Assembly: GCA_964019135.1 (NCBI GenBank)
Contig: OZ025256.1
Location: 37,358,035 to 37,422,034 of the forward strand
Reading direction: 5' to 3'
DNA: 64,000 bases
DNA from: Arenicola marina
Lineage: Eukaryota > Annelida > Polychaeta > Arenicolidae
Of this stretch, positions 40,269 to 61,777 are shown one piece after another. Below the pieces are notes generated by a model, which did not search any database, had not been told where the DNA came from, and saw only the letters and a program-made list of their open reading frames with translations. The stretch's first letter is position 1, and each line of letters begins with the position of its first letter. A program made the translations under genes and the position numbers.

Positions 40269-40326
40269 ATGTAATGGTGGATCCAGGGGGTGGGGGGTGG
40301 GGGTGGGCACAGAGAGCCACGAACTG

Positions 40327-41844: not shown

Positions 41845-41970
41845 ACTATATACAGGGCCAGGAACTACACCCTCAGGAACATACCTCCTTGTTGCGAACA
41901 CCAGTCAGTGACAGCGTCGGGATATTAAATACAATCTTCGTCATTGTTTCATTCATCCAAGTATAAACAA
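41845..41970 (+). promoter_or_regulatory. Possible core promoter and 5' leader exon of the tetraspanin gene
   Basis: The first coding exon of the tetraspanin starts only five bases after a 3' splice site, so a non-coding leader exon must lie upstream. One candidate is ACTATATACAGG (TATA-like, about 41845) followed about 120 bp later by a consensus donor ACAAGTAAGTCC with the GT at 41971. There is no transcript evidence; other donors further upstream or outside this interval are equally possible. Confidence 0.22.
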
Positions 41971-42229
41971 GTAAGTCCAGTTGTATGACAACACCGTACA
42001 CACAAGATAAAAGAGTACCCAAGGATAACTATGTGTTGGTATATGTAACGGGAAGCAGCTTAACTAACCCACACCATAAGTGAATTAGGCCTATATGATA
42101 AAGCTACCTTGTCTACGGGGAAGATGCCAGCTGTCGCCGTTAATAAAGGCTATAATCCATGGACCTCTCCTTTGTGAGTGGAGCCATGAATGTTCACTGC
42201 CGACAGCTGTGGCGTCCCCGTCGACCTGC

Positions 42230-42440
42230 CATGGTCTAGGGCGCTGGCTGCAGCAATCAGGTCACCGCCTATGGTTGGTTGTATATTCAGGAGACTTTAA
42301 TCGTTTTTGGTCATATCGCGTAAATGGGAGAAGGGAAGGAGAGTGGAGCCATGTCCCCGGGGGTAACCCCCTACTCTTTACGAAGAAGGACTTGGGATCT
42401 TTAGGGCAAACCGGGGCTAGTTCTCCCCCCGGGTAAGTCA
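42230..42440 (+). repeat. Interspersed repeat, copy 1
   Basis: GGTTGGTTGTATATTCAGGA, then TTTGGTCATATCGCGTAAATG, GGAGAAGGGAAGGAGAGTGG, AGCCATGTCCCCGG and CTTTACGAAGAA align in order with 61488-61640. The two copies are in the same orientation and about 19 kb apart, with roughly 80% identity over about 140 bp. The class (SINE body, LINE untranslated region or other) is not determinable here. Confidence 0.7.
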
Positions 42441-42559
42441 GGCCACCTCGATTATCGTTTTACTTGGCTACATAATGTTCGACCAGCGACCACACAGGCA
42501 TGGCCACAGCGGGGCGCGAACAACCGATCCACGTGCCGGTAGGCTCTCAGGTGACCAGG

Positions 42560-42711
42560 GTCCGTAAGTTCGAAACGCCAGGGGCAAAATATTTCGCTCT
42601 AGACTAGGACATTAGCATGGAGCGGGGCAAAATATTTGGCCCCCGCGGCTTCGACCTTACGGCAGAGCACTGAAGGCGAGCGCTCTAACCCACTGAGCCA
42701 TCGGCGCGACC
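42560..42711 (-). repeat. tRNA-derived SINE-like head
   Basis: On the minus strand from 42711 the sequence begins GGTCGCGCCGATGGCTCAGT and continues GGGTTAGAGCGCTCGCCTTC. TGGCTCAGTGGG (42689-42700) is an RNA polymerase III A box. GGTCGAAGCC (42647-42656) resembles a B box lacking one T, at tRNA-like spacing. There is no closing acceptor arm pairing with the start. The downstream tail contains two copies of a CAAATATTTTGCCCC-like motif. This fits a tRNA-derived SINE or tRNA pseudogene rather than a working tRNA. Confidence 0.6.
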
Positions 42712-43058
42712 ATCACCGCCTTTGATGACGGAGGCATCGCGGATGGCGACCTGGGCAATGTAGAAGACTGCATTATTCATACCCCCCCCCCCCCCAACCC
42801 GCCCCCCACCTTACTTTATGAAAGTAGGGAATGTCACGGACGATTATAGTCCAGTGGCTGAACCCGCCTCCCCCCCCCCCCCCCACCCCTTCCTTCTCGC
42901 CCACGGGTGCACGGGGCCCAGTTTTACATATTATTGATGAACATTTGGCGGTTTCCATGTAAGGAAATACTACCTGCAGCCCGTCCATCAGCGCCCATCA
43001 GTGTCCATCAGCGCGGTGTATGGATATACCGACCCGTTACTATATATATGGCTGTTAT

Positions 43059-43069
43059 TATGACCAGTT
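43059..43069. repeat. LINE target-site duplication, left
   Basis: TATGACCAGTT here is repeated exactly at 43604-43614, on the far side of the LINE fragment. Confidence 0.85.
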
Positions 43070-43603
43070 CTAGTTATTATTAGGCTGAGATTAAAGGACG
43101 TGGCTCATCAAGAGTGGCTAATTGAATTAAACCAGTGCAGTAAACTTGATACGTTAGCGCAATCTAAATCTTTGCTAGAACCAGAACTGTATTTAAAGTA
43201 TATGACCAATGTGAATCACAGAAAAGCTCTAGCAAGGTTGAGATGTTTGCTCGCGATTTACAGATAGAGAGAGGAAGACGCAAGAAATTAGACAGAGAAG
43301 ACTAAGATGAATACCATTTTGTTATGATTTGCCCCTTATATTCGGTGTCTAGAAGAAAACTACTGCCACAAAATCTCATCAAATATCTCACGAGTATAAA
43401 GTCCTGACTTTATTGATGATATGTGTAACCTGAATCAAATTATGATTAAAAACTTAGCCATATTTGTATGTGAAGCCAGCGAACAAGACTCTCAGCTTTG
43501 GAAAACTCGTGACGCACGTATGTATTTGCATATATTTTTGTAAACTCTATATATGTACCATGGGCGTTGTGCCTAAAGTACTTCAATAAACTATATATAT
43601 ATA
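43070..43603 (+). mobile_element. 5'-truncated LINE 3' end
   Basis: The + strand reads as the end of a LINE ORF2: RLRLKDVAHQEWLIELNQ, then LYLKYMTNVNHRKALARLR. With frame changes it continues to DLQIERGRRKKLDRE, EYHFVMICPLYS, LLPQNLIKYLTS and KNLAIFVCEAS. This is the post-RT tail seen in CR1/L2-like families, and it matches the style of the fragment at 11002-11346. It ends with AATAAACTATATATATAT, a short simple-repeat tail. The 11-bp direct repeats on both sides show a complete insertion that was truncated at the 5' end on arrival. It lies about 60 bp upstream of the tetraspanin's first coding exon. Two or three frame breaks make it non-functional. Confidence 0.85.
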
Positions 43604-43614: not shown

Positions 43615-43668
43615 GGCAATTAGCGATGCGCACAACTTTAAAGTTTGTTTTTGTTTCTTCCAGTAACC

Positions 43669-43725
43669 ATGTGCACCGAGACGATCTGCAAGATACTCCT
43701 GTATGTCCTCAATGTCGTCTTCTTC
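43669..43725 (+). CDS. Tetraspanin coding exon 1 (residues 1-19)
   Basis: The acceptor TTTGTTTCTTCCAG ends at 43663 and leaves TAACC before the ATG, so an upstream non-coding exon is expected. It encodes MCTETICKILLYVLNVVFF, the short N-terminus and first half of TM1, with Cys2 and Cys7 as likely palmitoylation sites. The donor is GTGAGTAT at 43726. Phase 0. Confidence 0.9.
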
Positions 43726-46700
43726 GTGAGTATACTGCCTGGTGCCGTGCATGAGGGTAACTGTGAGGAACCGTGAGGGGGTGTGTGTGTGTGTCTGGGG
43801 TGGCGGGGGGGGGGGGGGGGTAACTAGTGCCATGGCTATAGCACGGGCAAATAAAAATTTGTGAATGCTCGTCCTGAACGGTTTTACTGTCACAGCTGTG
43901 TACCCCGCATGCCCAGCCCGGTAACCACCCTGCAGACATTTCACCTATTTACCCCCTCCCCCACCTATCCCCCTCCTCCCCCCGTCCTGGACATGATACA
44001 TCTGTACATAGACTATATGCCTGAGTTGACCGAGTTGATCACCCTTCACTTACTATACCATGCTCACCCCCCCCCCCTCCCCACCCTACACACACAAGGC
44101 TCATCTTGGCTAATCCAGGAAAAATAGACATTTTGAGGGGTTCCTGTAAAATAATATCCAGGCTCAAACTTTGTTTTTTGACAAATAGTGGTTATGTAGA
44201 ATTTCCCGGACATACGGAGACATATCAATTGTTTGCTTATCTATTTTAAGTCAATCCCTTGCATTGACTTGACAATTTATGAACATAGCCTAAATAAAAC
44301 GATCGAACAGCAAGAGTGTCGTTTTCAAATCTCAAAGGTACTAAATGGACAGTTGACATTTTAAATCGCGGGGGCACGCAAACCACTTGGGCGGCGGCCT
44401 GACATCTCGCGTTAGCCATCTCGCGGCAAAGGGCGTTCCGCTTAATAATACGCTGTTATTGCGAAGTGTTAGTTCCATAAACTCCTCAATTGCGATGCTA
44501 GGATAGCGGAACGTCTACTTCATACAAAGCTGCTTCAAATGTGCACAATTCAACCTAAAGAACCCTCAGAAACATCTCTTGTGACCCCGACACTGTTGAG
44601 GTCAACTGGTAAGTTTATTGCTGTGTAAGATACTTGGGTAAAACCCCAAAATCTCAGTAGCCCCCCTCAACCCTCCCCCACCCCTCCCTATGGGGACTTC
44701 GCAGAGCTTGGTTTGCAGCTACATTCAAGTAACAGACTTTAGACTGCCGGTGATTCATTTGAAAACTTGGTGAACGACGCCACGTGGGCTGGTAACAACT
44801 TCCAGCGTCATACACCACCCTCTGTACACACGAGTGAAATGCAAACATGCAAACATGCAAACATCCTCAACCGCCTTAAATCACTTGCTCCGGTTTATCA
44901 CTGAGACCAGACACCTTGAGTAGTTAATAATGCCTGACATTTAGAGTCCCAAATCAATGTGGAAAATAAAACTCGTTGATCACAAGTAGTACAGACTGTA
45001 CTACAGAGTGTGTTCACTAAGGCTGTCAGACTGTACTACAGAGTGTGTTCACTAAGGCTGTCCGACTGTATTACAGTGTGTTCACCAAGGCTGTCAGACT
45101 GTACTACAGAGTGTTCACCAAGGCTGTCCGACTGTATTACAGTGTGTTCACCAAGGCTGTCACACTGTACTACAGAGTGTGTTCACTAAGGCTGTCACAC
45201 TGTATTACAGTGTGTTCACTAAGGCTGTCAGACTGTACTACAGTGTGTTCACCAAGGCTGTCAGACTGTACTACAGAGTGTGTTCACTAAGGCTGTCACA
45301 CTGTACCACAGAGTGTGTTCACCAAGGCTGTCAGACTGTACTACAGTGTGTTCACCAAGGCTGTCAGACTGTACTACAGTGTGTTCACCAAGGCTGTCAG
45401 ACTGTACCACAGAGTGTGTTCACCAAGGCTGTCAGACTGTACTACAGTGTGTTCACCAAGGCTGTCAGACTGTACTACAGAGTGTTCACCAAGGCTGTCA
45501 GACTGTACTACAGTGTGTTCATCAAGGCTGTCAGACTGTACTACAGTGTGTTCACCAAGGCTGTCACACTGTACCACAGAGTGTGTTCACCAAGGCTGTC
45601 AGACTGTACTACAGTGTGTTCACCAAGGCTGTCAGACTGTACTACAGAGTGTTCACCAAGGCTGTCAGACTGTACTACAGTGTGTTCACCAAGGCTGTCA
45701 GACTGTACTACAGTGTGTTCACCAAGGCTGTCAGACTGTACTACAGTGTGTTCACCAAGGCTGTCAGACTGTACTACAGTGTGTTCACCAAGGCTGTCAG
45801 ACTGTACTACAGAGTGTGTTCACCAAGGCTGTCAGACTGTACTACAGTGTGTTCACCAAGGCTGTCAGACTGTACTACAGTGTGTGTTCACCAAGGCTGT
45901 CAGAATGTACTACAGAGTGTGTTCACAAAGGCTGTCAGACTGTACTACAGAGTGTGTTTACCAAGGCTGTCAGACTGTACTACAGTGTGTTCACCAAGGC
46001 TGTCAGACTGTACTACAGAGTGTTCACTAAGGCTGTCGGACTGTACTACAGAGTGTGTTCACAAAGGCTGTCAGACTGTACTACAGTGTGTTCACTAAGG
46101 CTGTCAGACTGTACTACAGTGTGTTCACTAAGGCTGTCAGACTGTAGTACAGTGTGTTCACCAAGCCTGTCAGACTGTACTACAGAGTGTGTTCACAAAG
46201 GCTGTCAGACTGTACTACAGTGTGTTCACCAAGGCTGTCAGACTGTACTACAGTGTGTTCACCAAGGCTGTCAGACTGTACTACAGTGTGTTCACCAAGG
46301 CTGTCAGACTGTACTACAGTGTGTTCACCAAGGCTGTCAGACTGTACTTCAGTGTGTTCACCAAGGCTGTCAGACTGTACTACAGTGTGTTCACCAAGGC
46401 TGTCAGACTGTACTACAGAGTGTGTTCACAAAGGCTGTCAGACTGTACTACAGTGTGTTCACCAAGGCTGTCAGACTGTACTACAGTGTGTTCACCAAGG
46501 CTGTCAGACTGTACTACAGTGTGTTCACTAAGGCTGTCAGACTGTACTACAGTGTGTTCACCAAGGCTGTCAGACTGTACTACAGAGTGTGTTCACTAAG
46601 GCTGTCAGACTGTACTACAGTGTGTTCACCAAGGCTGTCAGACTGTACTACAGTGTGTTCACCAAGGCTGTCAGACTGTACTACAGTGTGTTCACCAAGG

Positions 46701-49700
46701 CTGTCAGACTGTACTACAGAGTGTGTTCACCAAGGCTGTCAGACTGTACTACAGAGTGTTCACCAAGGCTGTCACACTGTACCACAGAGTGTGTTCACCA
46801 AGGCTGTCAGACTGTACTACAGAGTGTTCACCAAGGCTGTCACACTGTACCACAGAGTGTGTTCACCAAGGCTGTCAGACTGTACAACAGGGTGTTCACC
46901 AAGGCTGTCAGACTGTACTACAGTGTGTTCACCAAGGCTGTCAGACTGTACTACAGTGTGTTCACCAAGGCTGTCAGACTGTACTACAGTGTGTTCACCA
47001 AGGCTGTCAGACTGTACTACAGTGTGTTCACCAAGGCTGTCAGACTGTACCACAGAGTGTGTTCACCAAGGCTGTCAGACTGTACTACAGTGTGTTCACC
47101 AAGGCTGTCAGACTGTACTACAGAGTGCTCACCAAGGCTGTCAGACTGTACTACAGTGTGTTCACCAAGCCTGTCAGACTGTACTACAGTGTGTTCAGCA
47201 AGGCTGTCACACTGTACCACAGAGTGTGTTCACCAAGGCTGTCAGACTGTACTACAGTGTGTTCACCAAGGCTGTCACACTGTACTACAGAGTGTTCACC
47301 AAGGCTGTCAGACTGTACTACAGTGTGTTCACCAAGGCTGTCAGACTGTACTACAGTGTGTTCACCAAGGCTGTCAGACTGTACTACAGTGTGTTCACCA
47401 AGGCTGTCAGACTGTACTACAGTGTGTTCACCAAGGCTGTCAGACTGTACTACAGTGTGTTCACCAAGGCTGTCAGACTGTACTACAGTGTGTTCACCAA
47501 GGCTGTCAGACTGTACTACAGTGTGTTCACCAAGGCTGTCAGACTGTACTACAGAGTGTTCACCAAGGCTGTCAGACTGTACTACAGTGTGTTCACCAAG
47601 GCTGTCAGACTGTACTACAGAGTGTTCACCAAGGCTGTCAGACTGTACTACAGTGTGTTCACCAAGGCTGTCAGACTGTACTACAGTGTGTTCACCAAGG
47701 CTGTCAGACTGTACTACAGTGTGTTCACCAAGGCTGTCAGACTGTACTACAGTGTGTTCACCAAGGCTGTCAGACTGTACTACAGTGTGTTCACCAAGGC
47801 TGTCAGACTGTACTACAGTGTGTTCACCAAGGCTGTCAGACTGTACTACAGAGTGTGTTCACCAAGGCTGTCAGACTGTACTACAGAGTGTGTTCACCAA
47901 GACTGTCAGACACGTACGCATGCTGAGTGTGTGCCGAGCTTCACCCCCCGGGGGGTGGGATACTTAATACATTGCAGGTGTGGGGGGTTCCGCGGGAAAG
48001 CCCCTCCTTTTTCACCGTCATAACCTGCTCGGTCGGGGTATTATTTCACGGTATCCCGCTCTATGAATGCACGTTTGCATAACCCTCCAACCCCCCCCCC
48101 CCCCTCTCCCTCGGTCGCAAATTTTAAAATATCCGCTCAAGAGGAGTACCCTCTTCATCATAAATATCCGATCTCTCAGGCATCAAGACAACTCCGCGGA
48201 CCCCCCCCCCCCCCCCCACCAGATTTGTATAATAGTGCCCCCCGGGCTTCAACCAAAGTATATAGTTTATAGTATTCATTATGAAACTCGGTAGCTTGTT
48301 GCCCACCCTCTCTACACGGGGCTAAACATGTAACGTGAGCACACCCCCCCCCCCCCCCGCCCCCTCCCTTCTAGGAGTACGGTGACGACTGTTAATGGAG
48401 AAGAGAGATGGCAATATATATATATATATATACATATTGTTATTATCGAAATAGTCCAGATTTATCGTGTAAAACGGGTATACATATTAAAAATATTTAT
48501 ATATATGATCTGTATTTACACGGTGCTTATGCATAATTGTCGTGGTTGGAAAATCTAAGCTATGTCTACCTAAATCTACCTGCCACTTTGATAGATATGT
48601 ACAAACACCATCGTGTTTTTTTTCAGTAACTATGACCGTAACTCTGATAATATGTTATAACCATGACCATAACCATGGTGACAGGCTGCAGTAAATATAA
48701 CGGTAACCATGTTGATAGGCTGCAATAACTATGACCGTAACCATGGTGTTTGGCTTCAGTAACTATGACGGTAACCATGGGGCTAGGCTGCAGTGACTAT
48801 GACCGTAACCATGGTGTTTGGTTGCAGATCGCGGGGGGCGCCATCCTGGCGGTTGGTATCATCGCCCTGGTGAAGGAGGACCTCATCTACCAGGCCGTGG
48901 AGTTCCTGTCAGGCTCACTCGCCGATGTCATCGGCCAACTCAAGATCCTGACGACCATCGACCTTGCTGAACTCATCACAGCCAACGCCATCATCCTGGT
49001 TGTCGTCGGGGGCGTCCTCTTCGGGATCGGATTCTTCGGATGCTGCGGCGCCTGCAAGAAGAACAGCTGCATGCTGACCATTGTGAGTACATGGTAGACC
49101 GGGGTGAGGGCGGTGGGATATGGCTGACCATTGTGAGTACATGGGAGACCGGGGTGAGGGCGGTGGGATAGGGCTGACCATTGTGAGTACAAGGGAGACC
49201 GGGGTGAGGGCGGTGGGAGGGGGCTGACCATTGTGAGTACAAGGGAGACCGGGGTGAGGGCGGTGGGATAGGGCTGACCATTGTGAGTACAAGGGAGACC
49301 GGGGTGAGGGCGGTGGGAGGGGGCTGACCATTGTGAGTACATGGGAGACCGGGGTGAGGGCGGTGGGAGGGGGCTGACCATTGTGAGTACAAGGGAGACC
49401 GGGGTAAGGGCGGTGGGAGGGGGCTGACCATTGTGAGTACAAGGGAGACCGGGGTGAGGGCGGTGGGAGGGGGCTGACCATTGTGAGTACAAGGGAGACC
49501 GGGGTGAGGGCGGTGGGAGGGGGCTGACCATTGTGAGTACATGGTAGACCGGGGTGAGGGCGGTGGGATATGGCTGACCATTGTGAGTACAAGGGAGACC
49601 GGGGTGAGGGCGGTGGGAGGGGGCTGACCATTGTGAGTACATGGTAGACCGGGGTAAGGGCGGTGGGAGGGGGCTGACCATTGTGAGTACATGGGAGACC

Positions 49701-52700
49701 GGGGTGAGGGCGGTGGGATAGGGCTGACCATTGTGAGTACATGGTAGACCGGGGTGAGGGTGGTGGGATATGGCTGACCATTGTGAGTACAAGGGAGACC
49801 GGGGTGAGGGCGGTGGGAGGGGGCTGACCATTGTGAGTACATGGTAGACCGGGGTAAGGGCGGTGGGAGGGGGCTGACCATTGTGAGTACAAGGGAGACC
49901 GGGGTGAGGGCGGTGGGATAGGGCTGACCATTGTGAGTACATGGTAGACCGGGGTGAGGGTGGTGGGATATGGCTGACCATTGTGAGTACATGGGAGACC
50001 GGGGTGAGGGCGGTGGGATAGGGCTGACCATTGTGAGTACATGGGAGACCGGGGTGAGGGCGGTGGGATAGGGCTGACCATTGTGAGCACATGGGAGACC
50101 GGGGTGAGGGCGGTGGGATAGGGCTGACCATTGTGAGTACAAGGGAGACCGGGGTGAGGGCGGTGGGAGGGGGCTGACCATTGTGAGTACATGGTAGACC
50201 GGGGTAAGGGCGGTGGGAGGGGGCTGACCATTGTGAGTACATGGGAGACCGGGGTGAGGGCGGTGGGATAGGGCTGACCATTGTGAGTACATGGGAGACC
50301 AGGGTGAGGGTGGTGGGATGGGGCTGACCATTGTGAGTACATGGTAGACCGGGGTAAGGGCGGTGGGATATGGCTGACCATTGTGAGTACATGGGAGACC
50401 GGGGTGAGGGCGGTGGGAGGGGGCTGACCATTGTGAGTACATGGTAGACCGGGGTAAGGGCGGTGGGATATGGCTGACCATTGTGAGTACATGGGAGACC
50501 GGGGTGAGGGCGGTGGGAGGGGGCTGACCATTGTGAGTACATGGTAGACCGGGGTAAGGGCGGTGGGATATGGCTGACCATTGTGAGTACATGGGAGACC
50601 GGGGTGAGGGCGGTGGGATAGGGCTGACCATTGTGAGTACATGGGAGACCGGGGTGAGGGCGGTGGGATAGGGCTGACCATTGTGAGCACATGGGAGACC
50701 GGGGTGAGGGCGGTGGGATAGGGCTGACCATTGTGAGTACATGGGAGACCGGGGTGAGGGCGGTGGGATAGGGCTGACCATTGTGAGTACATGGGAGACC
50801 GAGGTGAGGGCGGTGGGATGGGGCTGACCATTGTGAGTACATGGGAGACCGGGGTGAGGGCGGTGGGATAGGGCTGACCATTGTGAGTACATGGTAGACC
50901 GGGGTGAGGGCGGTGGGATAGGGCTGACCATTGTGAGTACATGGTAGACCGAGGTGAGGGCGGTGGGAGGGGGCTGACCATTGTGAGTACATGGGAGACC
51001 GGGGTGAGGGCGGTGGGATAGGGCTGACCATTGTGAGTACATGGGAGACCGGGGTGAGGGCGGTGGGATAGGGCTGACCATTGTGAGTACATGGTAGACC
51101 GGGGTGAGGGCGGTGGGATAGGGCTGACCATTGTGAGTACATGGGAGACCGGGGTGAGGGTGGTGGGAGGGGGCTGACCATTGTGAGTACATGGGAGACC
51201 GGGGTGAGGGCGGTGGGATAGGGCTGACCATTGTGAGTACATGGGAGACCGGGGTGAGGGTGGTGGGAGGGGGCTGACCATTGTGAGTACATGGGAGACC
51301 GCTGTGAGGGTGGTGGGATGGGGCTGACCATTGTGAGTACATGGTAGACCGGGGTGCGGGCAGTGGGATAGGGCTGACCATTGTGAGTACATGGGAGACC
51401 GGGGTGAGGGTGGTGGGAGGGGGCTGACCATTGTGAGTACATGGTAGACCGGGGTGCGGGCAGTGGGATAGGGCTGACCATTGTGAGTACATGGGAGACC
51501 GAGGTGAGGGCGGTGGGGGGGGGGGGCTGACCATTGTGAGTACATGGGAGACCGGGGTGAGAGCGGTGGGATAGGGCTGACCATTGTGAGTACATGGGAG
51601 ACCGGGGTGAGGGTGGTGGGAGGGGGCTGACCATTGTGAGTACATGGGAGACCGGGGTGACGGCGGTGGGAGGGGGCTGACCATTGTGAGTACATGGGAG
51701 ACCGGGGTGAGGGCGGTGGGATAGGGCTGATCATTGTGAGTACATGGGAGACCGGGGTGAGGGCGGTGGGAGGGGGCTGACCATTGTGAGTACATGGGAG
51801 ACTGGGGTGAGGGTGGTGGGATAGGGCTGCCCATTGTGAGTACATGGTAGACCGAGGTGAGGGCGGTGGGAGGGGGCTGACCATTGTGAGTACATGGGAG
51901 ACCGGGGTGAGAGCGGTGGGATAGGGCTGACCCTTGTGAGTACATGGTAGACCGGGGTGAGAGCGGTGGGATAGGGCTGACCATTGTGAGTACATGGTAG
52001 ACCGGGGTGAGGGCGGTGGGATAGGGCTGACCATTGTGAGTACATGGGAGACCGGGGTGAGGGCGGTGGGAGGGGGCTGACCATTGTGAGTACATGGGAG
52101 ACCGGGGTGAGGGTGGTGGGATGGGGCTGACCATTGTGAGTACATGGGAGACCGGGGTGAGGGCGGTGGGATGGGGCTGACCATTGTGAGTACATGGGAG
52201 ACCGGGGTGAGGGCGGTGGGATAGGGCTGACCATTGTGAGTACATGGGAGACCGGGGTGAGGGCGGTGGGAGGGGGCTGACCATTGTGAGTACATGGGAG
52301 ACCGGGGTGAGGGCGGTGGGATGGGGCTGACCATTGTGAGTACATGGGAGACCGGGGTGAGGGCGGTGGGAGGGGGCTGACCATTGTGAGTACATGGGAG
52401 ACCGGGGTGAGGGCGGTGGGATAGGGCTGATCATTGTGAGTACATGGTAGACCGGGGTGAGGGCAGTGGGATAGGGCTGACCATTGTGAGTACATGGTAG
52501 ACCGGGGTGAGGGCAGTGGGATCGGGCTGATCATTGTGAGTACATGGTAGACCGGGGTGAGGGCTGTGGGATGGGGCTGACCATTGTGAGTACATGGTAG
52601 ACCGGGGTGAGGGCTGTGGGATGGGGCTGACCATTGTGAGTACATGGGAGACCGGGGTGAGGGCGGTGGGATAGGGCTGATCATTGTGAGTACATGGTAG

Positions 52701-55700
52701 ACCGGGGTGAGGGCAGTGGGATAGGGCTGACCATTGTGAGTACATGGGAGACCGGGGTGAGGGCTGTGGGATGGGGCTGACTCTTGTGAGTACATGGGAG
52801 GCCAGTAGGATGCGGTTGAGTTTATTTAATGTAAATGAATTCTAATCTTAACTCCGAGTGTTACCCTCTTGACCCTTTTCCTTGTAGTATTCCGTGATCG
52901 TCCTCGTGGTCACTGGCGCTCAGATAGGAGTGGCTGTCTACGCCGTGGTGGACGCCTCCAGGGTAAGTCACCCCTCAGCCTCCCCCTCCCCTCCCCATGC
53001 CGTCCCCCACCTCCCCCCTCCCCATGCCCCCCTCTCCCCATTCCGTCCCCCCTGACGCCCCACTCTGCGTGCCTCAACCCACAGGCCCAGTCTATATATA
53101 TATATAAGTCTATATACCGGCCATTGCACAACAACGTGCTATACGCGTCCCCACTCACACACGTCATAAACATTGCCTTCTTTATTGCGCAATAACACGT
53201 GCGACAACCGATGCATGCCGGGACGGGCCGCGGGATAAACATTCACAGGAAAGGTCAGAAGCAAAGGTCATGTAAACAAATGTATTGACCGCGGCGCAGT
53301 AGCCAGTATTCGCACTCATATGAGGCCATTGTATGCGGTTTAATACCATGATATATGTCCCCATGTCCCTCAAACTTGGGGGACAAATTGGTCTCCTCCA
53401 CGGTGTCTAAATTTCAAAATGGGCCTTGATGTTGTGTTTTAGTTGGAGGCTCTGATTCAAAACGGCCTGACGATAGCGTTGGACAAGTCCTACAAATACG
53501 GTAAGGCACCTCATCGTTATCGCAAAGGGGGAATGTCATTAAAGAGGGTTTAGATAAACGCGCTTGTTGTGAACGCAGCAATGTAATTATTTTGAAAAGG
53601 CTGTGTTTTCTGCTGCTTTGTTAAACTTCTTTTTTAATACTAGATGGACCATTGATTGATGTATGCTGGAAATCGACAAAGGGGTATGTCTGTAGGTTTG
53701 GAGACAACAAGCCTTGGCTCCAAACTTACCTTAGCAGTGTTCGCGAGATGCCTTATTTGTATGTTGTGCTTTCATTCCGTCCTCAGGTATTCGCTTTAAT
53801 AGCAGTGGAATCGTGCAACCCACGCTTGGAGAGGACATTGCCTGGGATTACCTTCAGCTTGAGGTGGGTTCAGCGAATATTTAAGAGTATAGCTAAAGAA
53901 CTGCTGTAGATCGGTTATTATGTATGCCAAGTCAAGATGATAACATGTACAATGCTGTAAAATAATTAAAATGAGGATTGAAATTACTGTAGGTTTACCT
54001 CAATGTTTGGGTGACATTCACGGATGGGTCACATTCATGGTTGGGTCACATTCATGGTTGGGTCACATTCATGGTTGGGTCACATTCATGGTTGGGTCAC
54101 ATTCATGGTTGGGTCACATTCATGGTTGGGTCACATTCATGGTTGGGTCACATTCATGGTTGGGTCACATTCATGGTTGGGTCACATTCATGGTTGGGTC
54201 ACATTCATGGTTGGGTCACATTCATGGTTGGGTCACATTCATGGTTGGGTCACATTCATGGTTGGGTCACATTCATGGTTGGGTGGCATTCAAAGTTGGG
54301 TGGCATTCACAATTTGAGTGACATTCATGGATGGGTGACAGTTATTGATGGGCGACATTTATTGATGGGTGACATTTATGAATGGGTGACATTTATGAAT
54401 GGGTGATATTCCGTTTGAGTAAAATACGCGGATGGGTGACATTCGTGGTTGAGTGACATTCGTGGATGGGTGACGTTCATGGCGGCCTGCCTCCTTACAG
54501 CTCCAGTGCTGCGCCGTCAACAACTACACGGACTATTCCTCGAGCGCCCGCAACTGGAACTCGACGTACAACCTGAACGGGTCCTCTGTGAACGCCATGG
54601 TGCCGCCCTCCTGCTGCAAGGTCGACAACGTGGACGCCATCCCCGACAACATCCCCGGACTCCAGTTCACAAACCTCACCCTTTGCTTGACCTCCGGCGC
54701 GTCGGACTACACCAATCAGGCGGTAAGGACACATCCGGGCAACCTAGCGCACTCCCGGGGGGGGGTGGGGGGGTACTACATTACTACAGTGGTGGGGTGT
54801 GCCGCCAATGCCATAGAGAGCATGTGGAGAGCGAGAGAAAAGTGCACGATTTTGTGGTCATTAAGAGAGAATTTTTGAGTTAAAAAATAGACACTGACAG
54901 AAATTTGTGCTTAAAAAGGCAAAAGGCATCTAAAATAGACACCGATATTCATGACAAAGTGTCTGGAGATTAATTCTTTGACCCTTTTCAGTAAAGAACA
55001 GCAATTTTGAAACAAAAGTCAGTCTCAGATGGGCACATCGAGACAAAGATTGTAGATTTCTGCTTCTCGGGATTGATAGAAAAAAGGCGAAAAAAGGGAT
55101 CATTTGGGAGGCGCATATGTATATACCTAACTCTATGCCCCCCCCCCCCACCCACCCCCGGAAGCGCGCTAAGTACCCTCGCAATGGACGTTCAACCGGA
55201 AAGAAACATATTATGTGACGTCACGCCTGTAGCCAGACGACGCCGTGCGAACGCTGCCGTCACTATATCTTGAGGAGCTGTATGAATGCAAAGCCTATCG
55301 CTGTCCACTCAAAGCCGTACCTTCTAAGTGCCTACGTCATGCCCGTGGCTCTGCCATGTGTGTATTGCCTGATGACGACTGCTGCAGGTAGCTGACGTTT
55401 GTGTTTGTTGCAGGGTTGTTATGCAAGCCTCAGAAAGATTTTCACGGACAATCAGACACTGATCATCGCTATCTTCTGCCTCATCGTCGTTGTGGAGGTG
55501 AGTGCAGGTCTCGACATGAAACACCTTCATGCCTACCAAGCCAATATTAAAAGGAAAAGAAGTTACGTTAAAGGGCATCCTCCTTGCCATCAAGTATTAA
55601 AGCCTGTGGTACTGGCGTCAGCCTTAAGTTTTGACAAGTATGTTGTTCTGAGAGAGATTTCAAAACCCCAGTAGCTGTGGCCCATGAACTTTAAACTGCG

Positions 55701-55943
55701 TACTGCCGGCGTGAAGAGGCTAGACAAATGTGGCAATTCGTCATACATATATTTCTTACATTAGTTTAAATAACATAGACTGGTAACAAATTGTCGGAAG
55801 CACGCTAATAATCGCTGCATAGATTAGTGAAGCGATGCTCTGGCGACTACAGTATGACAGGACTCTGACTCGGGTGCTGTTCTTGCCTCCAGATCATCGC
55901 TGTGGCTGCCGCCTGCATCCTAAAGGCCAAGGGGGAGAAGTAA
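43669..55943 (+). CDS. Tetraspanin family membrane protein (8 coding exons, 292 aa)
   Basis: Spliced exons: 43669-43725, 48828-49082, 52888-52962, 53443-53500, 53787-53863, 54501-54722, 55414-55497, 55893-55943. All introns are GT-AG; all are phase 0 except intron 4 (phase 1). The 292-residue product has the tetraspanin plan. TM1 is about 9-34, with polar Asn15. A small loop precedes TM2 (about 71-91), followed by GCCGACKK at 90-97. TM3 is about 104-125, with Gln116 in the usual polar position. The large extracellular loop is about 126-262. TM4 is about 264-286, with Glu276. The loop has six cysteines (177, 178, 212, 213, 236, 250). The usual CCG is CCA (177-179), preceded by WDYLQLELQ, with PPSCC at 209-213 and GC at 249-250. 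There are six N-glycosylation sequons (153, 182, 194, 200, 232, 261). The C-terminal tail is short (KAKGEK), with no YXXphi sorting motif. Tetraspanins organise membrane microdomains with integrins and other partners; the specific subfamily and partners are unknown. The start follows a splice acceptor by five bases and gives a normal short cytoplasmic N-terminus. Confidence 0.93.
44991..47911. repeat. 33/35-bp minisatellite inside intron 1 (about 86 units)
   Basis: Units contain TGTGTTCACCAAGGCTGTCA followed by GACTGTACTACAG. A two-base AG insertion (CAGAGTGTG) makes 35-bp variants, and a TACCACAG subtype recurs in patterns. Because 33 is divisible by 3 the array gives open frames of several hundred codons with an 11-residue period (MFTKAVRLYYS). 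It lies wholly inside an intron, so coding use is unlikely. Several units end in CTACAG or CCACAG, a weak acceptor-like sequence without a pyrimidine tract. Confidence 0.96.
47955..48255. repeat. Interspersed G-rich repeat, copy B
   Basis: Shares ordered segments with 59140-59550: CGCGGGAAAGCCCCTCC, CTGCTCGGTCGGGG, AAAATATCCGCTCAAGAGGAG, AAATATCCGATCTCTCAGGC, ATCAAGACAAC and GTATAATAGTG. The spacing differs by insertions that are mostly C runs. It sits inside the tetraspanin's intron 1. Confidence 0.7.
48624..48827 (+). repeat. 34-bp minisatellite ending in the exon 2 splice acceptor
   Basis: Units of TAACTATGACCGTAACCATG followed by GTGTTTGGCTTCAG. The terminal (C)AG/(C)AA falls at 48626, 48691, 48725 (AA instead of AG), 48759, 48793 and 48827: four successive 34-bp steps after one 65-bp step. 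The last AG is the actual acceptor of tetraspanin exon 2. About six units, diverged by 10-20%. Confidence 0.9.
48828..49082 (+). CDS. Tetraspanin coding exon 2 (residues 20-104)
   Basis: The 255-bp exon encodes the rest of TM1, the small extracellular loop, TM2 and the GCCGACKKN motif, and ends NSCMLTI. It is phase 0 at both ends. Its last 10 bases (GCTGACCATT) and its donor GTGAGTAC are the seed of the 50-bp array that follows. An upstream ATG at 48750 in the same frame lies in the 34-bp array and is not a plausible start. Confidence 0.95.
49073..52796. repeat. 50-bp minisatellite containing the exon 2 donor (about 75 units)
   Basis: Perfect 50-bp spacing of GCTGACCATTGTGAGTAC, followed in each unit by ATGGGAGACCGGGGTGAGGG and CGGTGGGAT. 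The first occurrence is the real end of exon 2 (49073-49082) plus its donor. The rest fill nearly all of intron 2. Unit variants: CATGG/CAAGG, GGAGACC/GGTAGACC, GTGAGGG/GTAAGGG, GATAGGG/GAGGGGG. A few units have GTGAGCAC or lose the ACCATT context. The minus strand is stop-free in three frames, giving false proteins of 900-1,150 codons. Confidence 0.97.
52888..52962 (+). CDS. Tetraspanin coding exon 3 (residues 105-129)
   Basis: The acceptor TTTTCCTTGTAG precedes 75 bp encoding YSVIVLVVTGAQIGVAVYAV and VDASR, that is, TM3. The donor is GTAAGTCA. Phase 0 on both sides. Confidence 0.93.
52963..53442 (+). other. Tetraspanin intron 3 (480 bp)
   Basis: Starts with a C-rich simple stretch (CCTCCCCATGCC repeated several times, about 52980-53050), then contains TATATATATATA near 53094. 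The rest is unremarkable. Confidence 0.8.
53443..53500 (+). CDS. Tetraspanin coding exon 4 (residues 130-148 plus 1 nt)
   Basis: The 58-bp exon encodes LEALIQNGLTIALDKSYKY plus the first base of Gly149: the start of the large extracellular loop (helix A region). The donor is GTAAGGCA. It leaves phase 1, matched by exon 5. Confidence 0.88.
53787..53863 (+). CDS. Tetraspanin coding exon 5 (residues 149-174)
   Basis: The acceptor CATTCCGTCCTCAG is followed by 77 bp that restore the frame (G)IRFNSSG and end AWDYLQLE. The WDYLQ segment is the conserved helix B just before the CC motif of exon 6. The donor is GTGGGTTC. Confidence 0.9.
54009..54482. repeat. 17-bp minisatellite in intron 5 (about 16 clean units, then degenerate)
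   Basis: Clean tandem GGGTCACATTCATGGTT from about 54026 to 54285. Diverged relatives follow (GGGTGACATTTATGAAT, GAGTGACATTCGTGG) and continue to about 54482. Only about 18 bp separate the last unit from the exon 6 acceptor at 54500, so the array occupies the region where the branch point would be. Confidence 0.93.
54501..54722 (+). CDS. Tetraspanin coding exon 6 (residues 175-248)
   Basis: The 222-bp exon encodes most of the large loop's variable region: LQCCAVNNYTDY, PPSCCK and the fifth cysteine in NLTLCLTS. It contains four of the six glycosylation sequons. The donor is GTAAGGAC. Phase 0 on both sides. Confidence 0.94.
54723..55413 (+). other. Tetraspanin intron 6 (691 bp)
   Basis: Contains poly-G (about 54758-54772) and poly-C (about 55138-55150) tracts but no recognisable repeat family or exon. 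Confidence 0.8.
55414..55497 (+). CDS. Tetraspanin coding exon 7 (residues 249-276)
   Basis: The acceptor GTGTTTGTTGCAG precedes 84 bp encoding GCYASLRKIFTDNQT, then IIAIFCLIVVVE: the last loop cysteine and the first part of TM4, with its conserved glutamate as the final codon. The donor is GTGAGTGC. Confidence 0.94.
55893..55943 (+). CDS. Tetraspanin coding exon 8 (residues 277-292, stop)
   Basis: The acceptor CTGTTCTTGCCTCCAG is followed by IIAVAAACILKAKGEK and TAA: the end of TM4 and a six-residue, lysine-rich cytoplasmic tail. Confidence 0.93.
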   Translation: MIAVAAACILKAKGEK

Positions 55944-57400
55944 AGACCGACCGGGACACCTTGTGGGATCCCTGCACACGTGACCCAGCACATATCATCG
56001 TCACAACAGGACGGGGATTCCATAGTGACGTCATCGTATCACACCTTGATACCCCGTAAGATGCCTTGGGGGATGGCCTATGGTGACGTCATCACATCAC
56101 CCAGTGAGAAGAGTTTCCCATGGTGACATCATCACTTACACCTCTCGTCCGTCCACCAGAGACATATTCCTATCGCAGAGACTTACTAAGAAAAGAAAAC
56201 GACCATTTCATCTCCCTAACTCTCGAATGTAGAGTACATCTATCTTGACTAGCCAAAGCTTTGTTTACATTTCTATATACATATATATCTATATTGCGTC
56301 ATTGATACCGTGTTACTAACTGACCTCGGTTTCGGGTGTCTTCTGAAGTTTAATACTCCTTTATTACATACTCGTGGTTCACAGACCGTGCGACCATCCA
56401 AACACTCACGAGTGTTTGGTTGTTTGACTCCATCTTTGTACCTTAAGGTTCAATACTCTTCGGGTGGAATATATACTCAGCGAACAAGATACGCTATCTC
56501 ATATCTTAACTCAGAAATGCGATTACTCACGATATATAGATCAAAATTACCAGTATTGCCTCCTCATTATTACTTCCTCAGCATTAACTCAAGAGTTGTC
56601 AACATATCGTGTCTCTACTGTCAATGTTACCTTTTGGCTTTGATGGAAGCATCGTGTCTGCAGCGATGTCCCAGTGTAATGTGTATAGAGTCCATCGCTG
56701 TGTGTGGTACACGATGACATAACAGGGGTGTGGTGACTAATTAATACGTGTGGCGACATGCGATCATCAGTGCAGCTCAACTGTGATACGTTCAAATACA
56801 ATGATGAGTAAGGATTTATTTTGTTCTGTAAAGGCATTCACGGTCATATTTTATATGAAAATGATGGAAACTTACGGATTAATTTCCAAACAGTGCAGTT
56901 GAGGTAATATATAAAGGCCGCCGCTGCTTAAGGCCCGAGTTAAATGCATATTCCGAAGAAGGTTGTCTAAGCGCTGCTTCCACCTAATGGTTCACTATTG
57001 TTAAATCGTTTTATGTAATCTCCATTGATTTGATCGAATTTGGTGATCAGTGAGTGACAAAAGGTAATATTGGAGCCTTTATCAGCTGGAATTATCAACG
57101 AGACATGAATAAGAATTACTGTATTTTGTATACCAAGATTTTCGCCGGGCGATTTCTCCAGTTGGTGTTTTGTTTAATATCTTGTTCATAACCTTTATAT
57201 GGTTGTATATATTGGAGAATCATATCACAAATAACAATATATTTTTTACTAATTCACGTTGATTGTTGGTGAGTGTTGTTTATTGTTTACAGCTTGTTAT
57301 CGTCCAAGTGGTTTCTTATCACATAGACAACAGGTGCAATTTTATACTGGCAGTTAAACTCAATATTGTATGTGTAATAAAGCAGACTATTGATCGGCCG
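55944..57400 (+). other. Probable 3' untranslated region of the tetraspanin
   Basis: No further coding sequence is seen after the stop. Near its start are three spaced relatives of GGTGACGTCATCAC (about 56024, 56081 and 56128), a decayed repeat of about 50 bp. The most complete poly(A) signal is AATAAA at 57376-57381, with a GT-rich stretch (CATGTGGTTTGTGTTTG) about 45 bp downstream. The end is therefore placed near 57400, but an earlier end cannot be excluded. The 135-codon frame at 56310-56717 has no family motif. Confidence 0.5.
57376..57381 (+). terminator. Candidate poly(A) signal AATAAA
   Basis: Canonical hexamer about 1.4 kb after the tetraspanin stop, followed by a GT-rich element. 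Assignment to this gene is inference from position. Confidence 0.45.
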
Positions 57401-57639
57401 ATCTAACTTGATTCTCATCTCGGTCATGTGGTTTGTGTTTGAACTGAGCCTGAGCCTCTAGGTTGTCATGGCGCCGGGGCAATGAATGCTTGTTCACCAT
57501 GGCAACGATAATAAACAAACCACACCGCCGCACAACGCAGTTTTCTTTTATGCCTGGTTTGCGTTTGATGCTGGTAGCAACGGCATACAAGTTACCTCCG
57601 AATGTAGCTGAATTAAACCTCCAGGCACCGCCACAAGGT

Positions 57640-57832
57640 GCAGGGAGGGGTGAGAGACTTGGAGAGGAGGGGTGAGGGAGTTGGAGAGGGAGGGTGAGGA
57701 ACTTGGAGAGGGAGGGCTGGGGGACTTGCAGAGGGAGGGGTGAGGGACTTGCAGAGGGTGGGGTGAGGGACTTGGAGAGGGCGGGGTGAGGGACTTGGAG
57801 AGGGAGGGGTGAGGGACTGGATAGGGAGGGGT
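57640..57832. repeat. 23-bp G-rich minisatellite (about 8 units)
   Basis: Tandem GGTGAGGGACTTGGAGAGGG followed by AGG or CGG, with variants TTGCAGAGGG and GAACTTGG. Minus-strand frames read as Pro/Ser/Leu-rich repeats and are by-products. Confidence 0.93.
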
Positions 57833-58382
57833 GATTTCGTACACAGTTTTGACATCGATAAATTTGAGCAATATTAAGAATTTGAATTGCTAGACCGATC
57901 AATATAGGTAAAAGCTCGAGATGGTGGCATTTTCGTGTATTGTGTCATCAAACTCGTTTGCAGAAACTTCCTGGATAAATTGTCTGACTAGGTGATTGTT
58001 AACTTAAAAGTAGATGTGTTAACATATCTTACAAGACAAAGAGAGGCAGCGATCGACAATTTAGGATGACGTAGTGCACAATGTCACATTTTCTCACAGG
58101 AGATGCCCCATTTTGGCCAAAGAAAGGTTGCGTAACAGCATGCCATATTATTTGTAATACACAATATGATATATGCGTACATTCTCATTCCTAATCTAAA
58201 TACATCGTTTCCATTCAACACATTTCAAAACAAATGTTTTTCATCTAAGTTCCTCAACTCATACATATTATAACGCCTTAACGGGCCTATTGCAACATCA
58301 TGTCTACACCCATATCGGTGACTAGCCCTGACGCATGGCCCTCACGACCTCAACCCTAACGGGGTGTAAGAGCCATGCCATA
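57833..58382. other. Intergenic DNA, no gene recognised
   Basis: AT-rich, single-copy-looking sequence with no open frame or structural motif that I can support. Confidence 0.5.
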
Positions 58383-58733
58383 CCACAGGTGCCTCAATCG
58401 TGGGTCGGTAGGGCGGGAGGGGGGGCGGCCGGCTCTACACATATGTCATATAAAGAGAGAAGGTAGGCAAGCCATTTTGCAGCCAGAAAACTCAGCCCGA
58501 ACAACATCGGTCGATTTCGTCAACAAAATGCCCCGACTGCGCGGTTTCCTCGCTTCACTCAATGCCTCAACACTTTACTCGCGAAAATATCACGTAATCC
58601 CATTCAAACACACCTTCAAATCGCTGCATCAAGACATTTTTCCGCCATCTTTACGCGATTTTCACTGATGCCTCTCACCATGGCCGTTGACTGCCGCAGC
58701 GCATTTCTTAGAGCCTTCTGATTGGTTGTAACC
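58383..58733 (+). repeat. Inverted-repeat arm, left copy (carries a 97-codon frame)
   Basis: About 350 bp matching 59682-60045 in reverse complement with high identity, from CCACAGGTGCCTCAATCGTG to GATTGGTTGTAAC. The arm holds an open frame (start 58375) with segments NRGSVGREGG, CHIKREGRQAILQPENSART and KYHVIPFKHTFKSLHQDIFP that is conserved in the other arm despite indels in a poly-G run. I do not recognise the protein. In the opposite sense the arm has CCAAT boxes. It could be a DNA-element terminus or a duplicated gene edge. Confidence 0.75.
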
Positions 58734-59681
58734 TCTCGTGTGCCGTTTTCTCGCAAGCTCCTTCGTCCATATGCAAATTACATTGCAGGCTGTTCCATCA
58801 CTGGTACTCCCGCCTTAAGTATTCGTATCGATTAACATGTAGTAATAGTTTTCGCAGGGGGTGATACGGCGTTAGAATAAGTAGCGCTGATCGAGTCGTG
58901 CCTTTGGCATTAAAGTTTATAGGGGTCTGCACGGGTAAATGGCGACACACGACACAGAGATATTTGAAAATTCAACATTCGACATTGAGGATCGTACAGT
59001 TTTTTATTTCTTTGATCCAGCCGCCCATGAGCTCACTGACTTTCATTGTCATTGCTATGACATAAATTTACAAATGCACTGAAAATGGTTCGTGAACTAG
59101 GCCACACGACCCCTCCCCCCCCCCCACTTGCCCTCCCGGTGGGGGGGGGGGGTACTGAATATATTCCTGAGTTTAGGGGGGGTCCGCGGTAAAGCCCTCC
59201 CCCCTTTTTTTCACTGCCAAAATCCGCTCGGTCGGGGCGTTTTATTATCGCCAAATTCCGCCAATTTGAAAATCTGCTCGAAAGGGGAACGTCCCCCCTT
59301 TTTTGAGGACCAATGCCGTTTTTTCAATGCAAAATGTAGGCCATCTGAGCCGTGACTCCCCCCCCTCCCCCCTTTTGTTTTGGCGTGGACCCGCCCCCCG
59401 GTAAGAAGTATTCAGTGGAGCCCCCGCCCCCCACTTCCCCGGTCATCAAAAACTTCATAGTCCCTCGGCCCAGAGCCACAAATATCCGCTCTCTCAGGCA
59501 TCAAGACAACCGCGGAAATTGCCCCCCATCAGTTTTGTGTAATAGTGTATCTCCCCCTCCTCGGCTCCCCCCCCCCCCCCGCCCCTCCTCACTTCGTCTC
59601 TGTGTACTTTATAGGCATGTATTTAAAAAAAAAACGCCTGATGATTTCTGACCAATCAGAAGGCTGATAGCCACAGAGCAG
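58734..59681. other. Spacer between inverted arms, with interspersed repeat copy C
   Basis: Includes copy C of the G-rich interspersed repeat (about 59140-59550: CGCGGTAAAGCCCTCCCC, AATCCGCTCGGTCGGGG, AAATATCCGCTCTCTCAGGC, ATCAAGACAACCGCGG), with long G and C homopolymers at about 59114-59124, 59140-59153 and 59568-59580. No gene is supported. Confidence 0.6.
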
Positions 59682-60045
59682 TTACAACCAATGAGAACGC
59701 TCCAAAATACTCGCTGCGCTGCTGACAAACCTCAACGGCCATGGTGAGCGGCATCAGTGAAAATCGCGTAAAGTTGGCGGGAAAATGTCTTGATGCAGCG
59801 ATTTGAAGGTGTGTCTGAATGGGATTACGTGATATTTTCGCGAGTAAAGTGTTGAGGCATTGAGTGAAGCGAGGAAACCGCGCAGTCGGGGCATTTTGTT
59901 GACGAAATCGACCGATGTTGTTCGGGCTGAGTTTTCTGGCTGCAAAATGGCTTGCCTACCTTCTCTCTTTATATGACATATGTGTGAAGCCGGCCGCCCC
60001 CCCCCCCCCTCCCGCCCTACCGACCCACGATTGAGGCACCTGTGG
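59682..60045 (-). repeat. Inverted-repeat arm, right copy (carries a 108-codon frame)
   Basis: Reverse-complement partner of 58383-58733. The minus-strand frame 59754-60080 repeats the same residues (CHIKREGRQAILQPENSART, KYHVIPFRHTFKSLHQDIFP) with a few substitutions (K/R, S/T, L/S). The arm ends at CCTGTGG (60045), directly against the next foldback element. Confidence 0.75.
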
Positions 60046-60046
60046 C

Positions 60047-60655
60047 CATACACACGGTCAAAAAAGTAGCATTGCATCACCCAGCTCGCTTCGATGAATG
60101 ATTGTCGATTATGACGACGAACCTATCTCTCCTAATCGCCTCGACCCTCTTCTATAGACATTACTTGGACCATAGGATGCATTCATTTTAAAGTTTGCTC
60201 TCTACTTCTTGCACATCAATGATATTTTCGTCGGTCGTTAACGGTTTCCCTCCGTGCCGCTTCAATTTTTTCTAGGCGGTTGCCGCGGCTCGTTTGTTGA
60301 CATCAGGTAATACACCCGACAGCTTCCGTATGGCGGCGCCACTAATTCTCGTTGTGTGTCTATAGTCGTGCGTGGGTTTTTGACGCAACTAGCGGCGCCG
60401 CCATGCGGATGATGTCTGTTTTATTGCCTGGTCAAATTTGAAGCGTCAGAGAGGAAATCCGTTAACAACCGATGAAAATATCATGCATGTGCAAGTAATA
60501 GAGAGCAAACTTTAAGATGAATGCATCCTAGGGTCCAAGTAATGTGTAAAGAAGAGGGTCGCGGCGACTTAGAGAGGTAGGCTCGTTGTCATAATCGACA
60601 ATCATTCATTGAAGTGAGCTTGGTTATGCATTACTACTTTTTAACCATGTGTATT
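60047..60655. mobile_element. Foldback (MITE-like) element
   Basis: The left arm (about 60047-60335) pairs with the right arm (about 60395-60655) at roughly 80% identity. Paired landmarks include ATACACACGGTCAAAAAAGTAG with CTACTTTTTAACCATGTGTAT, GAATGATTGTCGATTATGAC with GTCATAATCGACAATCATTC, and ATGGCGGCGCCACTA with TAGCGGCGCCGCCAT. The centre is about 45 bp. It has no coding capacity. The outer ends are not sharp enough to define a target-site duplication. Confidence 0.8.
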
Positions 60656-60656
60656 G

Positions 60657-60698
60657 CTTGACCCTTCTGCCTATCAGCTTGTTGTCAGAAGGGTCAAG
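60657..60698. other. Perfect 13-bp hairpin
   Basis: CTTGACCCTTCTG (60657-60669) and CAGAAGGGTCAAG (60686-60698) are exact reverse complements around a 16-base loop, immediately right of the foldback element. It could be the remnant of terminal inverted repeats of another element, or a structural tip. There is no T run after it, so it is not a simple terminator. Confidence 0.6.
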
Positions 60699-60939
60699 TT
60701 CACTGGGCTAATCGGCGACCACGTTGTATTTCCCCCTTTCAAGTATTTCCTGTTGGCCGCCATGTTAAATGCAAATTTTTTGTCGAAAATGGCCAAAAGC
60801 CGTTTAATCCGGTAACACGTGTTTAAAACAACATCTTTAGGGAAAACCAGTTCACAGAGGGTGAAGTTGTGGCTACATACCTGTGTGCACCTTGACCTAC
60901 TATATTCCGCGACCCATATCCATATACACCACCTACAGT
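60699..60939. other. Intergenic DNA, no gene recognised
   Basis: Short mixed sequence between the hairpin and the C-rich block. The open frame starting at 60819 is extended only by the C-rich repeat. Confidence 0.5.
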
Positions 60940-61372: not shown

Positions 61373-61487
61373 ACAGTTTTTGCACAATTTATGCCGTAGA
61401 CCACGGCATAACCTTCTTTGTGGCACTCAACGCACGTCATTACGTCATAACGCCCCCTGGAGGGTTGAGAGGCGCTTCCCGTGGGAC

Positions 61488-61640: not shown

Positions 61641-61777
61641 GGACGGGAGGCGCCCTCTGGTGGGGTGGGAGGCGCCCCCCCTGGGCCCGGGTAACGCCAG
61701 GTGAAAAACTCGGGACATAAGTCTCTTCCTTCGCTGCCCGCTACAACCAGCGTTCACTCCGACATCAAACGCCCAGG

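What the first reader, a model, noticed from the sequence alone, without database searches (positions are those of the whole stretch)
49073..52796. A 3.7-kb, 75-copy minisatellite was seeded on a 5' splice junction: every unit carries the exon 2 donor
The 50-bp unit begins with GCTGACCATT, the last 10 bases of tetraspanin exon 2, followed by the donor GTGAGTAC. The spacing from the true junction (49082/49083) to the first intronic copy is exactly one period, so the array includes the exon end rather than merely lying near it. Nearly all copies keep ACCATT|GTGAGTAC intact over about 75 units, so intron 2 offers dozens of near-identical donors to the spliceosome. I recall amphioxus intronic minisatellites overlapping exon-intron boundaries being described at another locus; a case of this size in a tetraspanin may be new.
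Basis: seen in the sequence. Interest (0 to 1): 0.88.

Follow-up and report, generated by a model that had tools for sequence, protein, structure and literature searches.

The report
Minisatellite that copies a splice donor
In a tetraspanin gene, probably from a lancelet, one exon's end and its splice donor have been tandemly copied about 75 times into the next intron, and a smaller array carrying splice-acceptor copies sits on the exon's other side; this is a large example of a kind of repeat already described in lancelets.

Summary
A 50-bp array (49073-52800) has 75 anchored copies; 73 of 74 spacings are exactly 50 bp. Copy 1 contains the last 10 coding bases of a tetraspanin exon plus its donor. 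GT is intact in 75 of 75 copies, GTGAGT in 73, the full 18-mer in 66. An eight-exon model gives one open 292-aa tetraspanin; no transcript was available.

The donor array also holds 70 secondary GT sites scoring at least as high as the true donor.

This matches the published lancelet 'mirages' (PMC3087553, PMC3902484; passages read). It is a new, large, two-sided member of that kind; the species is inferred. Donor conservation is not proof of selection: of six other arrays measured, two have similarly invariant sub-windows. Most likely it is a neutral array, tolerated because splicing uses the exon-proximal donor, the only one that keeps the reading frame, and because in-register turnover usually regenerates the same junction (65 of 74 rejoinings).

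The parts
49073..52800 (+). 50-bp minisatellite, 75 anchored copies, each with the copied exon end (10 bp) and 5' splice site
49073..49082 (+). last 10 bases of the coding exon, which are also positions 1-10 of copy 1
49083..49090 (+). donor GTGAGTAC of the true junction (intron 2 of the model, phase 0)
48828..49082 (+). tetraspanin coding exon 2, touched on both sides by splice-site-bearing arrays
48624..48827 (+). 34-bp array, 6.1 copies by TRF (the first degenerate, 23 of 34 matches to the last), ending exactly on the acceptor AG
48627..48827 (+). acceptor-like units: TAAC starting at -22 in 5 of 6 listed copy ends; of the five upstream ends four have CAG (48626, 48691, 48759, 48793) and one CAA (48725)
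48616..48626 (+). T8-CAG that bounds the acceptor-side array upstream
49083..52887 (+). intron 2, 3805 bp, of which 3718 bp is array and 87 bp is a unique 3' tail
49092..49097 (+). TGG TAG in copy 1: in-frame stop at codon 5 for any exon extended past the true donor
43669..43725 (+). coding exon 1
52888..52962 (+). coding exon 3
53443..53500 (+). coding exon 4
53787..53863 (+). coding exon 5
54501..54722 (+). coding exon 6
55414..55497 (+). coding exon 7
55893..55943 (+). coding exon 8 with stop

Best explanation
It is a junction-spanning minisatellite of the lancelet 'mirage' kind. A stretch covering the last 10 bp of an ordinary tetraspanin exon and the first 40 bp of its intron was tandemly duplicated (shown by register; direction supported by homology). 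It then grew by in-register duplication and deletion, partly in two-unit steps (weakly supported), to 75 copies, so that a short intron became 3.8 kb (inferred). The spliceosome pairs the exon's acceptor with the exon-proximal donor and the intronic copies are decoys (inferred, no RNA data). Only that donor preserves the frame: any exon extended past it meets TAG at codon 5 (shown). The array persists because an in-register loss next to the exon rejoins the exon to another copy, which in 65 of 74 cases restores the same four codons and donor (shown by computation; its evolutionary role is inferred). No function is needed.
For: Register and counts. Open 292-aa tetraspanin, PF00335 E 6.6e-43. 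Ungapped alignments to CD53 and TSPAN7 across the junction. Copy 1 is letter-identical to copy 10 over 50 bp, so the exon-proximal unit takes part in turnover. 31 distinct units among 74; unit similarity at lags 2 and 4 was reached by 0 of 300 shuffles. Rejoining outcomes and stop codon. Published lancelet cases are said not to disturb regular splicing (PMC3087553 and PMC3902484, passages). Two of the four larger intronic arrays touch a junction exactly; random placement gave two or more in 0.039% of 200,000 trials (post hoc, donor array trimmed to its intronic part, a 26-bp run at 44839-44864 left out).
Against: No RNA evidence: use of the first donor is inferred. The true donor is weak: score 2.81, against 4.18-7.47 for five of the other six donors (the exon 1 donor is lower, 0.54), and 70 of 254 other GTs in the array score at least as high; simple donor strength does not explain why the first copy should win. 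The lag signal weakens when the array is halved (lag 2: 82 and 35 of 2000 shuffles reach it; lag 4: 28 and 890). The acceptor-side array contains no exon bases, so it is not a strict boundary duplication. A purely intronic array would be just as harmless, so self-restoration explains persistence, not origin. The species could not be established.
Confidence: 0.72

Rival explanations
1. The array regulates splicing. Repeated donors and G-runs bind U1 and hnRNP H/F-type factors (roles recalled), and copy number sets the rate of mis-splicing into transcripts with an early stop, which are then degraded.
For: 75 copied donors (one of them the real one) plus 70 further GTs in the array scoring at least as high, all 70 also pairing better with the recalled U1 end. 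58 of 74 units carry a G-quadruplex-type motif on the sense strand. Wrong choices tested on both flanks yield stops: extended exons stop at codon 5, and the four decoy acceptors tested are followed by TAA or TGA.
Against: Only sequence properties; each follows from one ancestral unit, so 75 copies are not 75 independent observations. Junction conservation is not distinctive against other arrays. Published mirages reportedly do not disturb mRNA.
Confidence: 0.1
2. The extra donors are kept intact by selection.
For: Non-consensus cells are 8 of 1332 in the 18 junction columns against 142 of 2368 in the other 32; by this count the junction window is the lowest of 50 circular windows, tied with its two neighbours. 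Altered 18-mers are in 2 of the first 50 and 7 of the last 25 copies (Fisher p 0.005; cut chosen after seeing the data, copies not independent).
Against: Variable columns, 4 of 18 against 16 of 32, give p 0.07; counted by distinct alternative letters the junction window (4) is not the lowest (windows starting at 9 and 10 have 3). Seven other arrays were measured; one had no defined ratio, and the other six had minima of 0.104, 0.025, 0.259, 0.494, 0.146 and 0.506 against 0.100 here. In copies 1-74 the three variable exonic columns (5, 6, 8) all change the amino acid and columns 4, 7 and 10 do not vary, the opposite of coding selection on the copies.
Confidence: 0.07
3. The array, or its length, is an assembly artefact.
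For: No reads were available; the draft assembly of one lancelet mirage (BflGb6 haplotype 1) was judged aberrant by its describers (PMC3087553 supplementary legend).
Against: 31 distinct units among 74, a degenerate last unit and non-random order are not what simple duplication of a read would give. The exact copy number could still be wrong.
Confidence: 0.05
4. The exon end was captured from a pre-existing intronic array.
For: The junction lies inside the array, so register alone does not give the direction.
Against: The exon continues ungapped tetraspanin alignments through the junction, and the phase-0 frame is intact.
Confidence: 0.04

Closest known systems
Lancelet 'mirages' in Adh3 and globin genes BflGb6 and BflGb9 (PMC3087553, passages seen; the original Adh paper, Canestro 2002, is not held)
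   Same: [quoted passage not shown] many but not all units carry AG or GT splice signals; either exon boundary can be affected; concerted turnover of units.
   Different: BflGb6 has 6 and 3 units of 150-160 bp in two haplotypes, BflGb9 a duplicate of 157 bp; Adh3 units are given as 10-72 bp. Here there are 75 units of 50 bp plus an acceptor-side array at the same exon. In BflGb6 the boundary copies were excluded from homogenization; here copy 1 is identical to copy 10.
Lancelet PGBD5 60-bp and 108-bp tandem repeats at splice sites (PMC3902484, passages seen)
   Same: Repeats abut or include splice sites in a lancelet gene; said not to interfere with accurate splicing.
   Different: 2 or 7 and 3 or 6 imperfect copies depending on the assembly, at two different exons.
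Internal tandem repeats at exon-intron boundaries in human duplicated genes (PMC2812944, passages seen)
   Same: Minisatellite expansion at boundaries that can affect splice-site use.
   Different: On average 30-bp units repeated 4 times, reported as able to form novel introns; here an existing intron is inflated.
Intronic VNTR of ABCA7 (PMC5954066, search listing only)
   Same: Intronic VNTR that affects splicing, per its title.
   Different: I did not read whether its units carry splice sites.

Membership tests
Lancelet mirage (donor-side array) | Tandem repeat unit spans an exon-intron boundary | tested here: met
   10 exonic + 40 intronic bases per unit, in register with the modelled junction
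Lancelet mirage (donor-side array) | Units carry splice signals | tested here: met
   GT in 75 of 75, GTGAGT in 73 of 75
Lancelet mirage (acceptor-side array) | Tandem repeat unit spans an exon-intron boundary | tested here: not met
   The array ends on the last intron base 48827; the exon bases after it (ATCGCGG) do not resemble the unit start (TAACTAT). It abuts but does not span
Lancelet mirage (acceptor-side array) | Units carry splice signals | tested here: met
   Of the five upstream ends listed, four have CAG and one CAA
Lancelet mirage | Occurs in a cephalochordate genome | not testable with these tools
   No genome is held for this window; lancelet is inferred from minisatellite density and the literature match
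Lancelet mirage | Regular mRNA is made despite the copies | not testable with these tools
   No transcript data
Lancelet mirage | Length instability between haplotypes or tissues | not testable with these tools
   One sequence only; block turnover is inferred from unit order
Tetraspanin gene | Tetraspanin domain across the spliced product | tested here: met
   PF00335 E 6.6e-43, residues 8-286

The most novel reading that the evidence does not exclude
The exon is a copy-number-tuned splicing switch: acceptor copies upstream and about 145 donor-like sites downstream compete for the spliceosome, every wrong choice tested yields an early stop, and array length, which may vary between individuals and somatic cells, sets how much functional tetraspanin is made.
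Probability: 0.07. Interest if true: 0.82.

Novelty: new member of a known kind. Interest (0 to 1): 0.52.

Why it matters
It is a natural test of how a spliceosome picks one donor among dozens of identical ones spaced 50 bp apart, where donor strength and local sequence are nearly constant and only position differs. It also shows how a short intron could be inflated to nearly 4 kb from its own splice site, and it adds a large, two-sided case to the proposed route from boundary duplications to new introns.

Tried and rejected
Selection on the copied donors looked strong at first, but other arrays in the window show similar unevenness, so it was dropped as evidence of function. Coding use of the array: 50 is not a multiple of 3 and a stop comes at codon 5. 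Pseudo-exons inside the array: 22 of 296 AG sites have a pyrimidine fraction of 0.5 or more, maximum 0.53, but the exon's real acceptor is also only 0.53, so this measure does not exclude them. Array 54003-54482 stops 18 bp short of its exon and was not counted as junction-touching; the 33-bp array 44992-47911 lies 916 bp from the nearest junction. Relatives: one exact 22-mer scan of viral contigs found nothing; none of the genome collections offered here is of eukaryotes, so the orthologous intron was not compared. ARAGORN (bacterial settings) found no tRNA gene and Rfam at gathering scores no family. Open frames of 75 residues or more in three array-poor stretches (29700-35600, 38800-43600, 55950-61700) were listed and only glanced at; they were not searched against any family library. 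The first gene model had two wrong exon ends and a broken frame; one search replaced it. One search lists 43659 as an acceptor; that coordinate was wrong (the CAG before the ATG is 43661-43663) and the row is not used. Donor scores use splice-site frequencies and a U1 5' end that I recalled, not a trained lancelet model. Other papers opened: lancelet huntingtin and VCBP papers, passages only; no passage shown describes a junction-spanning array, though VCBP reports intronic exon copies, some with splice sites. A vertebrate tetraspanin paper (passages) did not settle whether this intron position is conserved. That no larger or two-sided mirage is in print rests only on the listings, in a library that lacks most subscription papers.
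Full report
What is there. The window holds a complete-looking tetraspanin coding region on the + strand: eight coding exons from 43669 to 55943 that join into one open frame of 292 residues, matching Pfam Tetraspanin at E 6.6e-43 over residues 8-286, with CD53, TSPAN7, CD9 and CD81 among the seven solved relatives listed. All seven introns of this model are GT-AG. No transcript was available, so the exon ends rest on the open frame and on homology.

The donor-side array. From 49073 to 52800 a 50-bp unit is repeated. Anchoring on its first 18 bases gives 75 copies; 73 of 74 spacings are 50 bp and one is 53. Positions 1-10 of copy 1 are the last ten bases of the second coding exon and positions 11-18 are the donor GTGAGTAC. 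GT is kept in 75 of 75 copies, GTGAGT in 73 and the whole 18-mer in 66. The 14-mer across the junction occurs 66 times in the window, all in the array, against a mean of 0.00 in 100 shuffles. Intron 2 is 3805 bp long, of which 3718 bp is array and 87 bp a unique tail.

The acceptor-side array. Its last unit ends exactly on the acceptor AG at 48827. Going upstream, the copy ends at 48793, 48759 and 48691 and the T8-CAG at 48626 have CAG, while 48725 has CAA. Five of six listed ends have TAAC starting at -22, a plausible branch site (the role is inferred). Unlike the donor side, this array contains no exon bases: it abuts the junction rather than spanning it. Two of the gene's four larger intronic arrays thus touch a junction exactly. 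Placing these four at random in their introns gave two or more such contacts in 0.039% of 200,000 trials and one or more in 3.7%. The test was designed after seeing the arrays, with the donor array trimmed to its intronic part and a 26-bp run at 44839-44864 left out.

Direction of origin. The exon end encodes residues that continue ungapped alignments to CD53 and TSPAN7 through the junction, and the frame is intact. The exon is therefore the likely source of the repeated ten bases, and the array a later growth.

Turnover. There are 31 distinct units among 74 full copies (the 3-bp insertion of copy 49 set aside). Copy 1, which contains the real junction, is identical over 50 bp to copy 10. Of lags 1 to 12, unit similarity at lags 2 and 4 was reached by 0 of 300 shuffles and at lag 7 by 9; lags 1 and 3 were ordinary (171 and 110). 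In the two halves taken apart the signal is weaker (lag 2: 82 and 35 of 2000 shuffles reach it; lag 4: 28 and 890). This suggests growth partly in 100-bp steps. Copies with an altered 18-mer are 2 of the first 50 and 7 of the last 25; the split was chosen after looking, and copies share ancestry.

Is the donor conserved by selection? At first sight yes: 8 of 1332 cells differ from consensus in the 18 junction columns against 142 of 2368 in the other 32. Three checks weaken this. Seven other arrays of the window were measured the same way; one has no defined ratio, and the other six have minima of 0.104, 0.025, 0.259, 0.494, 0.146 and 0.506 for the most invariant sub-window of the same relative size, against 0.100 here, so two are about as low or lower. 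The number of variable columns gives p 0.07, and by distinct alternative letters the junction window is not the lowest. What remains is that the minimum by cells falls on the junction, about 3 in 50 by chance counting ties. I do not claim selection.

Splicing consequences. 71 of the 75 donors score identically. The array also holds 254 other GTs, of which 70, mostly GGG|GTGAGG, score at least as high as the true donor with a simple recalled matrix; all 70 also pair better with the recalled U1 end. The true donor scores below five of the gene's other six donors. Any exon extended past the true donor reads VSTW and then stops. The four decoy acceptors tested upstream are followed at once by TAA or TGA in the frame set by exon 1. 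These stops come from single ancestral units and are not independent evidence of design. 58 of 74 units carry a G-quadruplex-type motif on the sense strand. If a deletion in register joined the exon to any later copy, 65 of 74 outcomes would leave the four codons and the six donor bases unchanged. This is a simple reason why such an array can persist on a coding junction; it does not explain why it started there.

What is known. Tandem repeats spanning exon-intron boundaries were named 'mirages' in lancelets. Passages of PMC3087553 describe them in globin genes (BflGb6 with 6 and 3 units of 150-160 bp in two haplotypes, BflGb9 with a 157-bp duplicate), cite Adh3 and other loci, note that either exon boundary can be affected, suggest that regular splicing is not disturbed, and propose that they lead to new introns. 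Passages of PMC3902484 describe 60-bp and 108-bp repeats at splice sites of lancelet PGBD5 and cite troponin C. The original Adh paper is not held. Passages of PMC2812944 describe human internal repeats at exon-intron boundaries that can form novel introns. I found no 75-copy or two-sided case in the listings, but most subscription papers are not in that library.

Verdict. The donor-side array meets the definition of a mirage on the two points I could test; that the organism is a lancelet, that mRNA is regular and that the array varies in length could not be tested. The acceptor-side array fails the spanning criterion and is best called a junction-abutting array with acceptor copies. The most likely reading is a neutral minisatellite that regenerates its own junction and whose interior donors are decoys. 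The bolder reading, a copy-number-tuned splicing switch, is not excluded. How one donor is chosen among dozens of identical ones is directly testable with long RNA reads.

Noticed in passing
window 48616-48827: The acceptor-side array is bracketed by CAG at both ends, the upstream one after eight T, which gives it a higher pyrimidine fraction than the true acceptor (0.76 against 0.53). It may be the original acceptor of the intron.
   Followed up: partly
window 30074-31058: Nested foldback of about 1 kb with inverted arms of 182, 154 and 63 nt, possibly a foldback transposable element.
   Followed up: no
window 58383-60045: Long inverted repeats, 276 nt at 97% and 46 nt at 98% complementarity, framing about 1 kb; MITE-like or foldback element.
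   Followed up: no
window 60061-60642: Another inverted repeat, 217-nt arms at 85% complementarity.
   Followed up: no
window 125-29611: Almost 30 kb made up mostly of minisatellites, including about 368 copies of a 32-bp unit and 211 copies of a 28-bp unit.
   Followed up: no
window 44992-47911: 33-bp array of about 87 copies in intron 1 of the same gene, with CAG in the consensus unit; it does not touch a junction.
   Followed up: partly
window 54003-54482: 17-bp array that stops 18 bp before coding exon 6, near a junction but not on it.
   Followed up: partly
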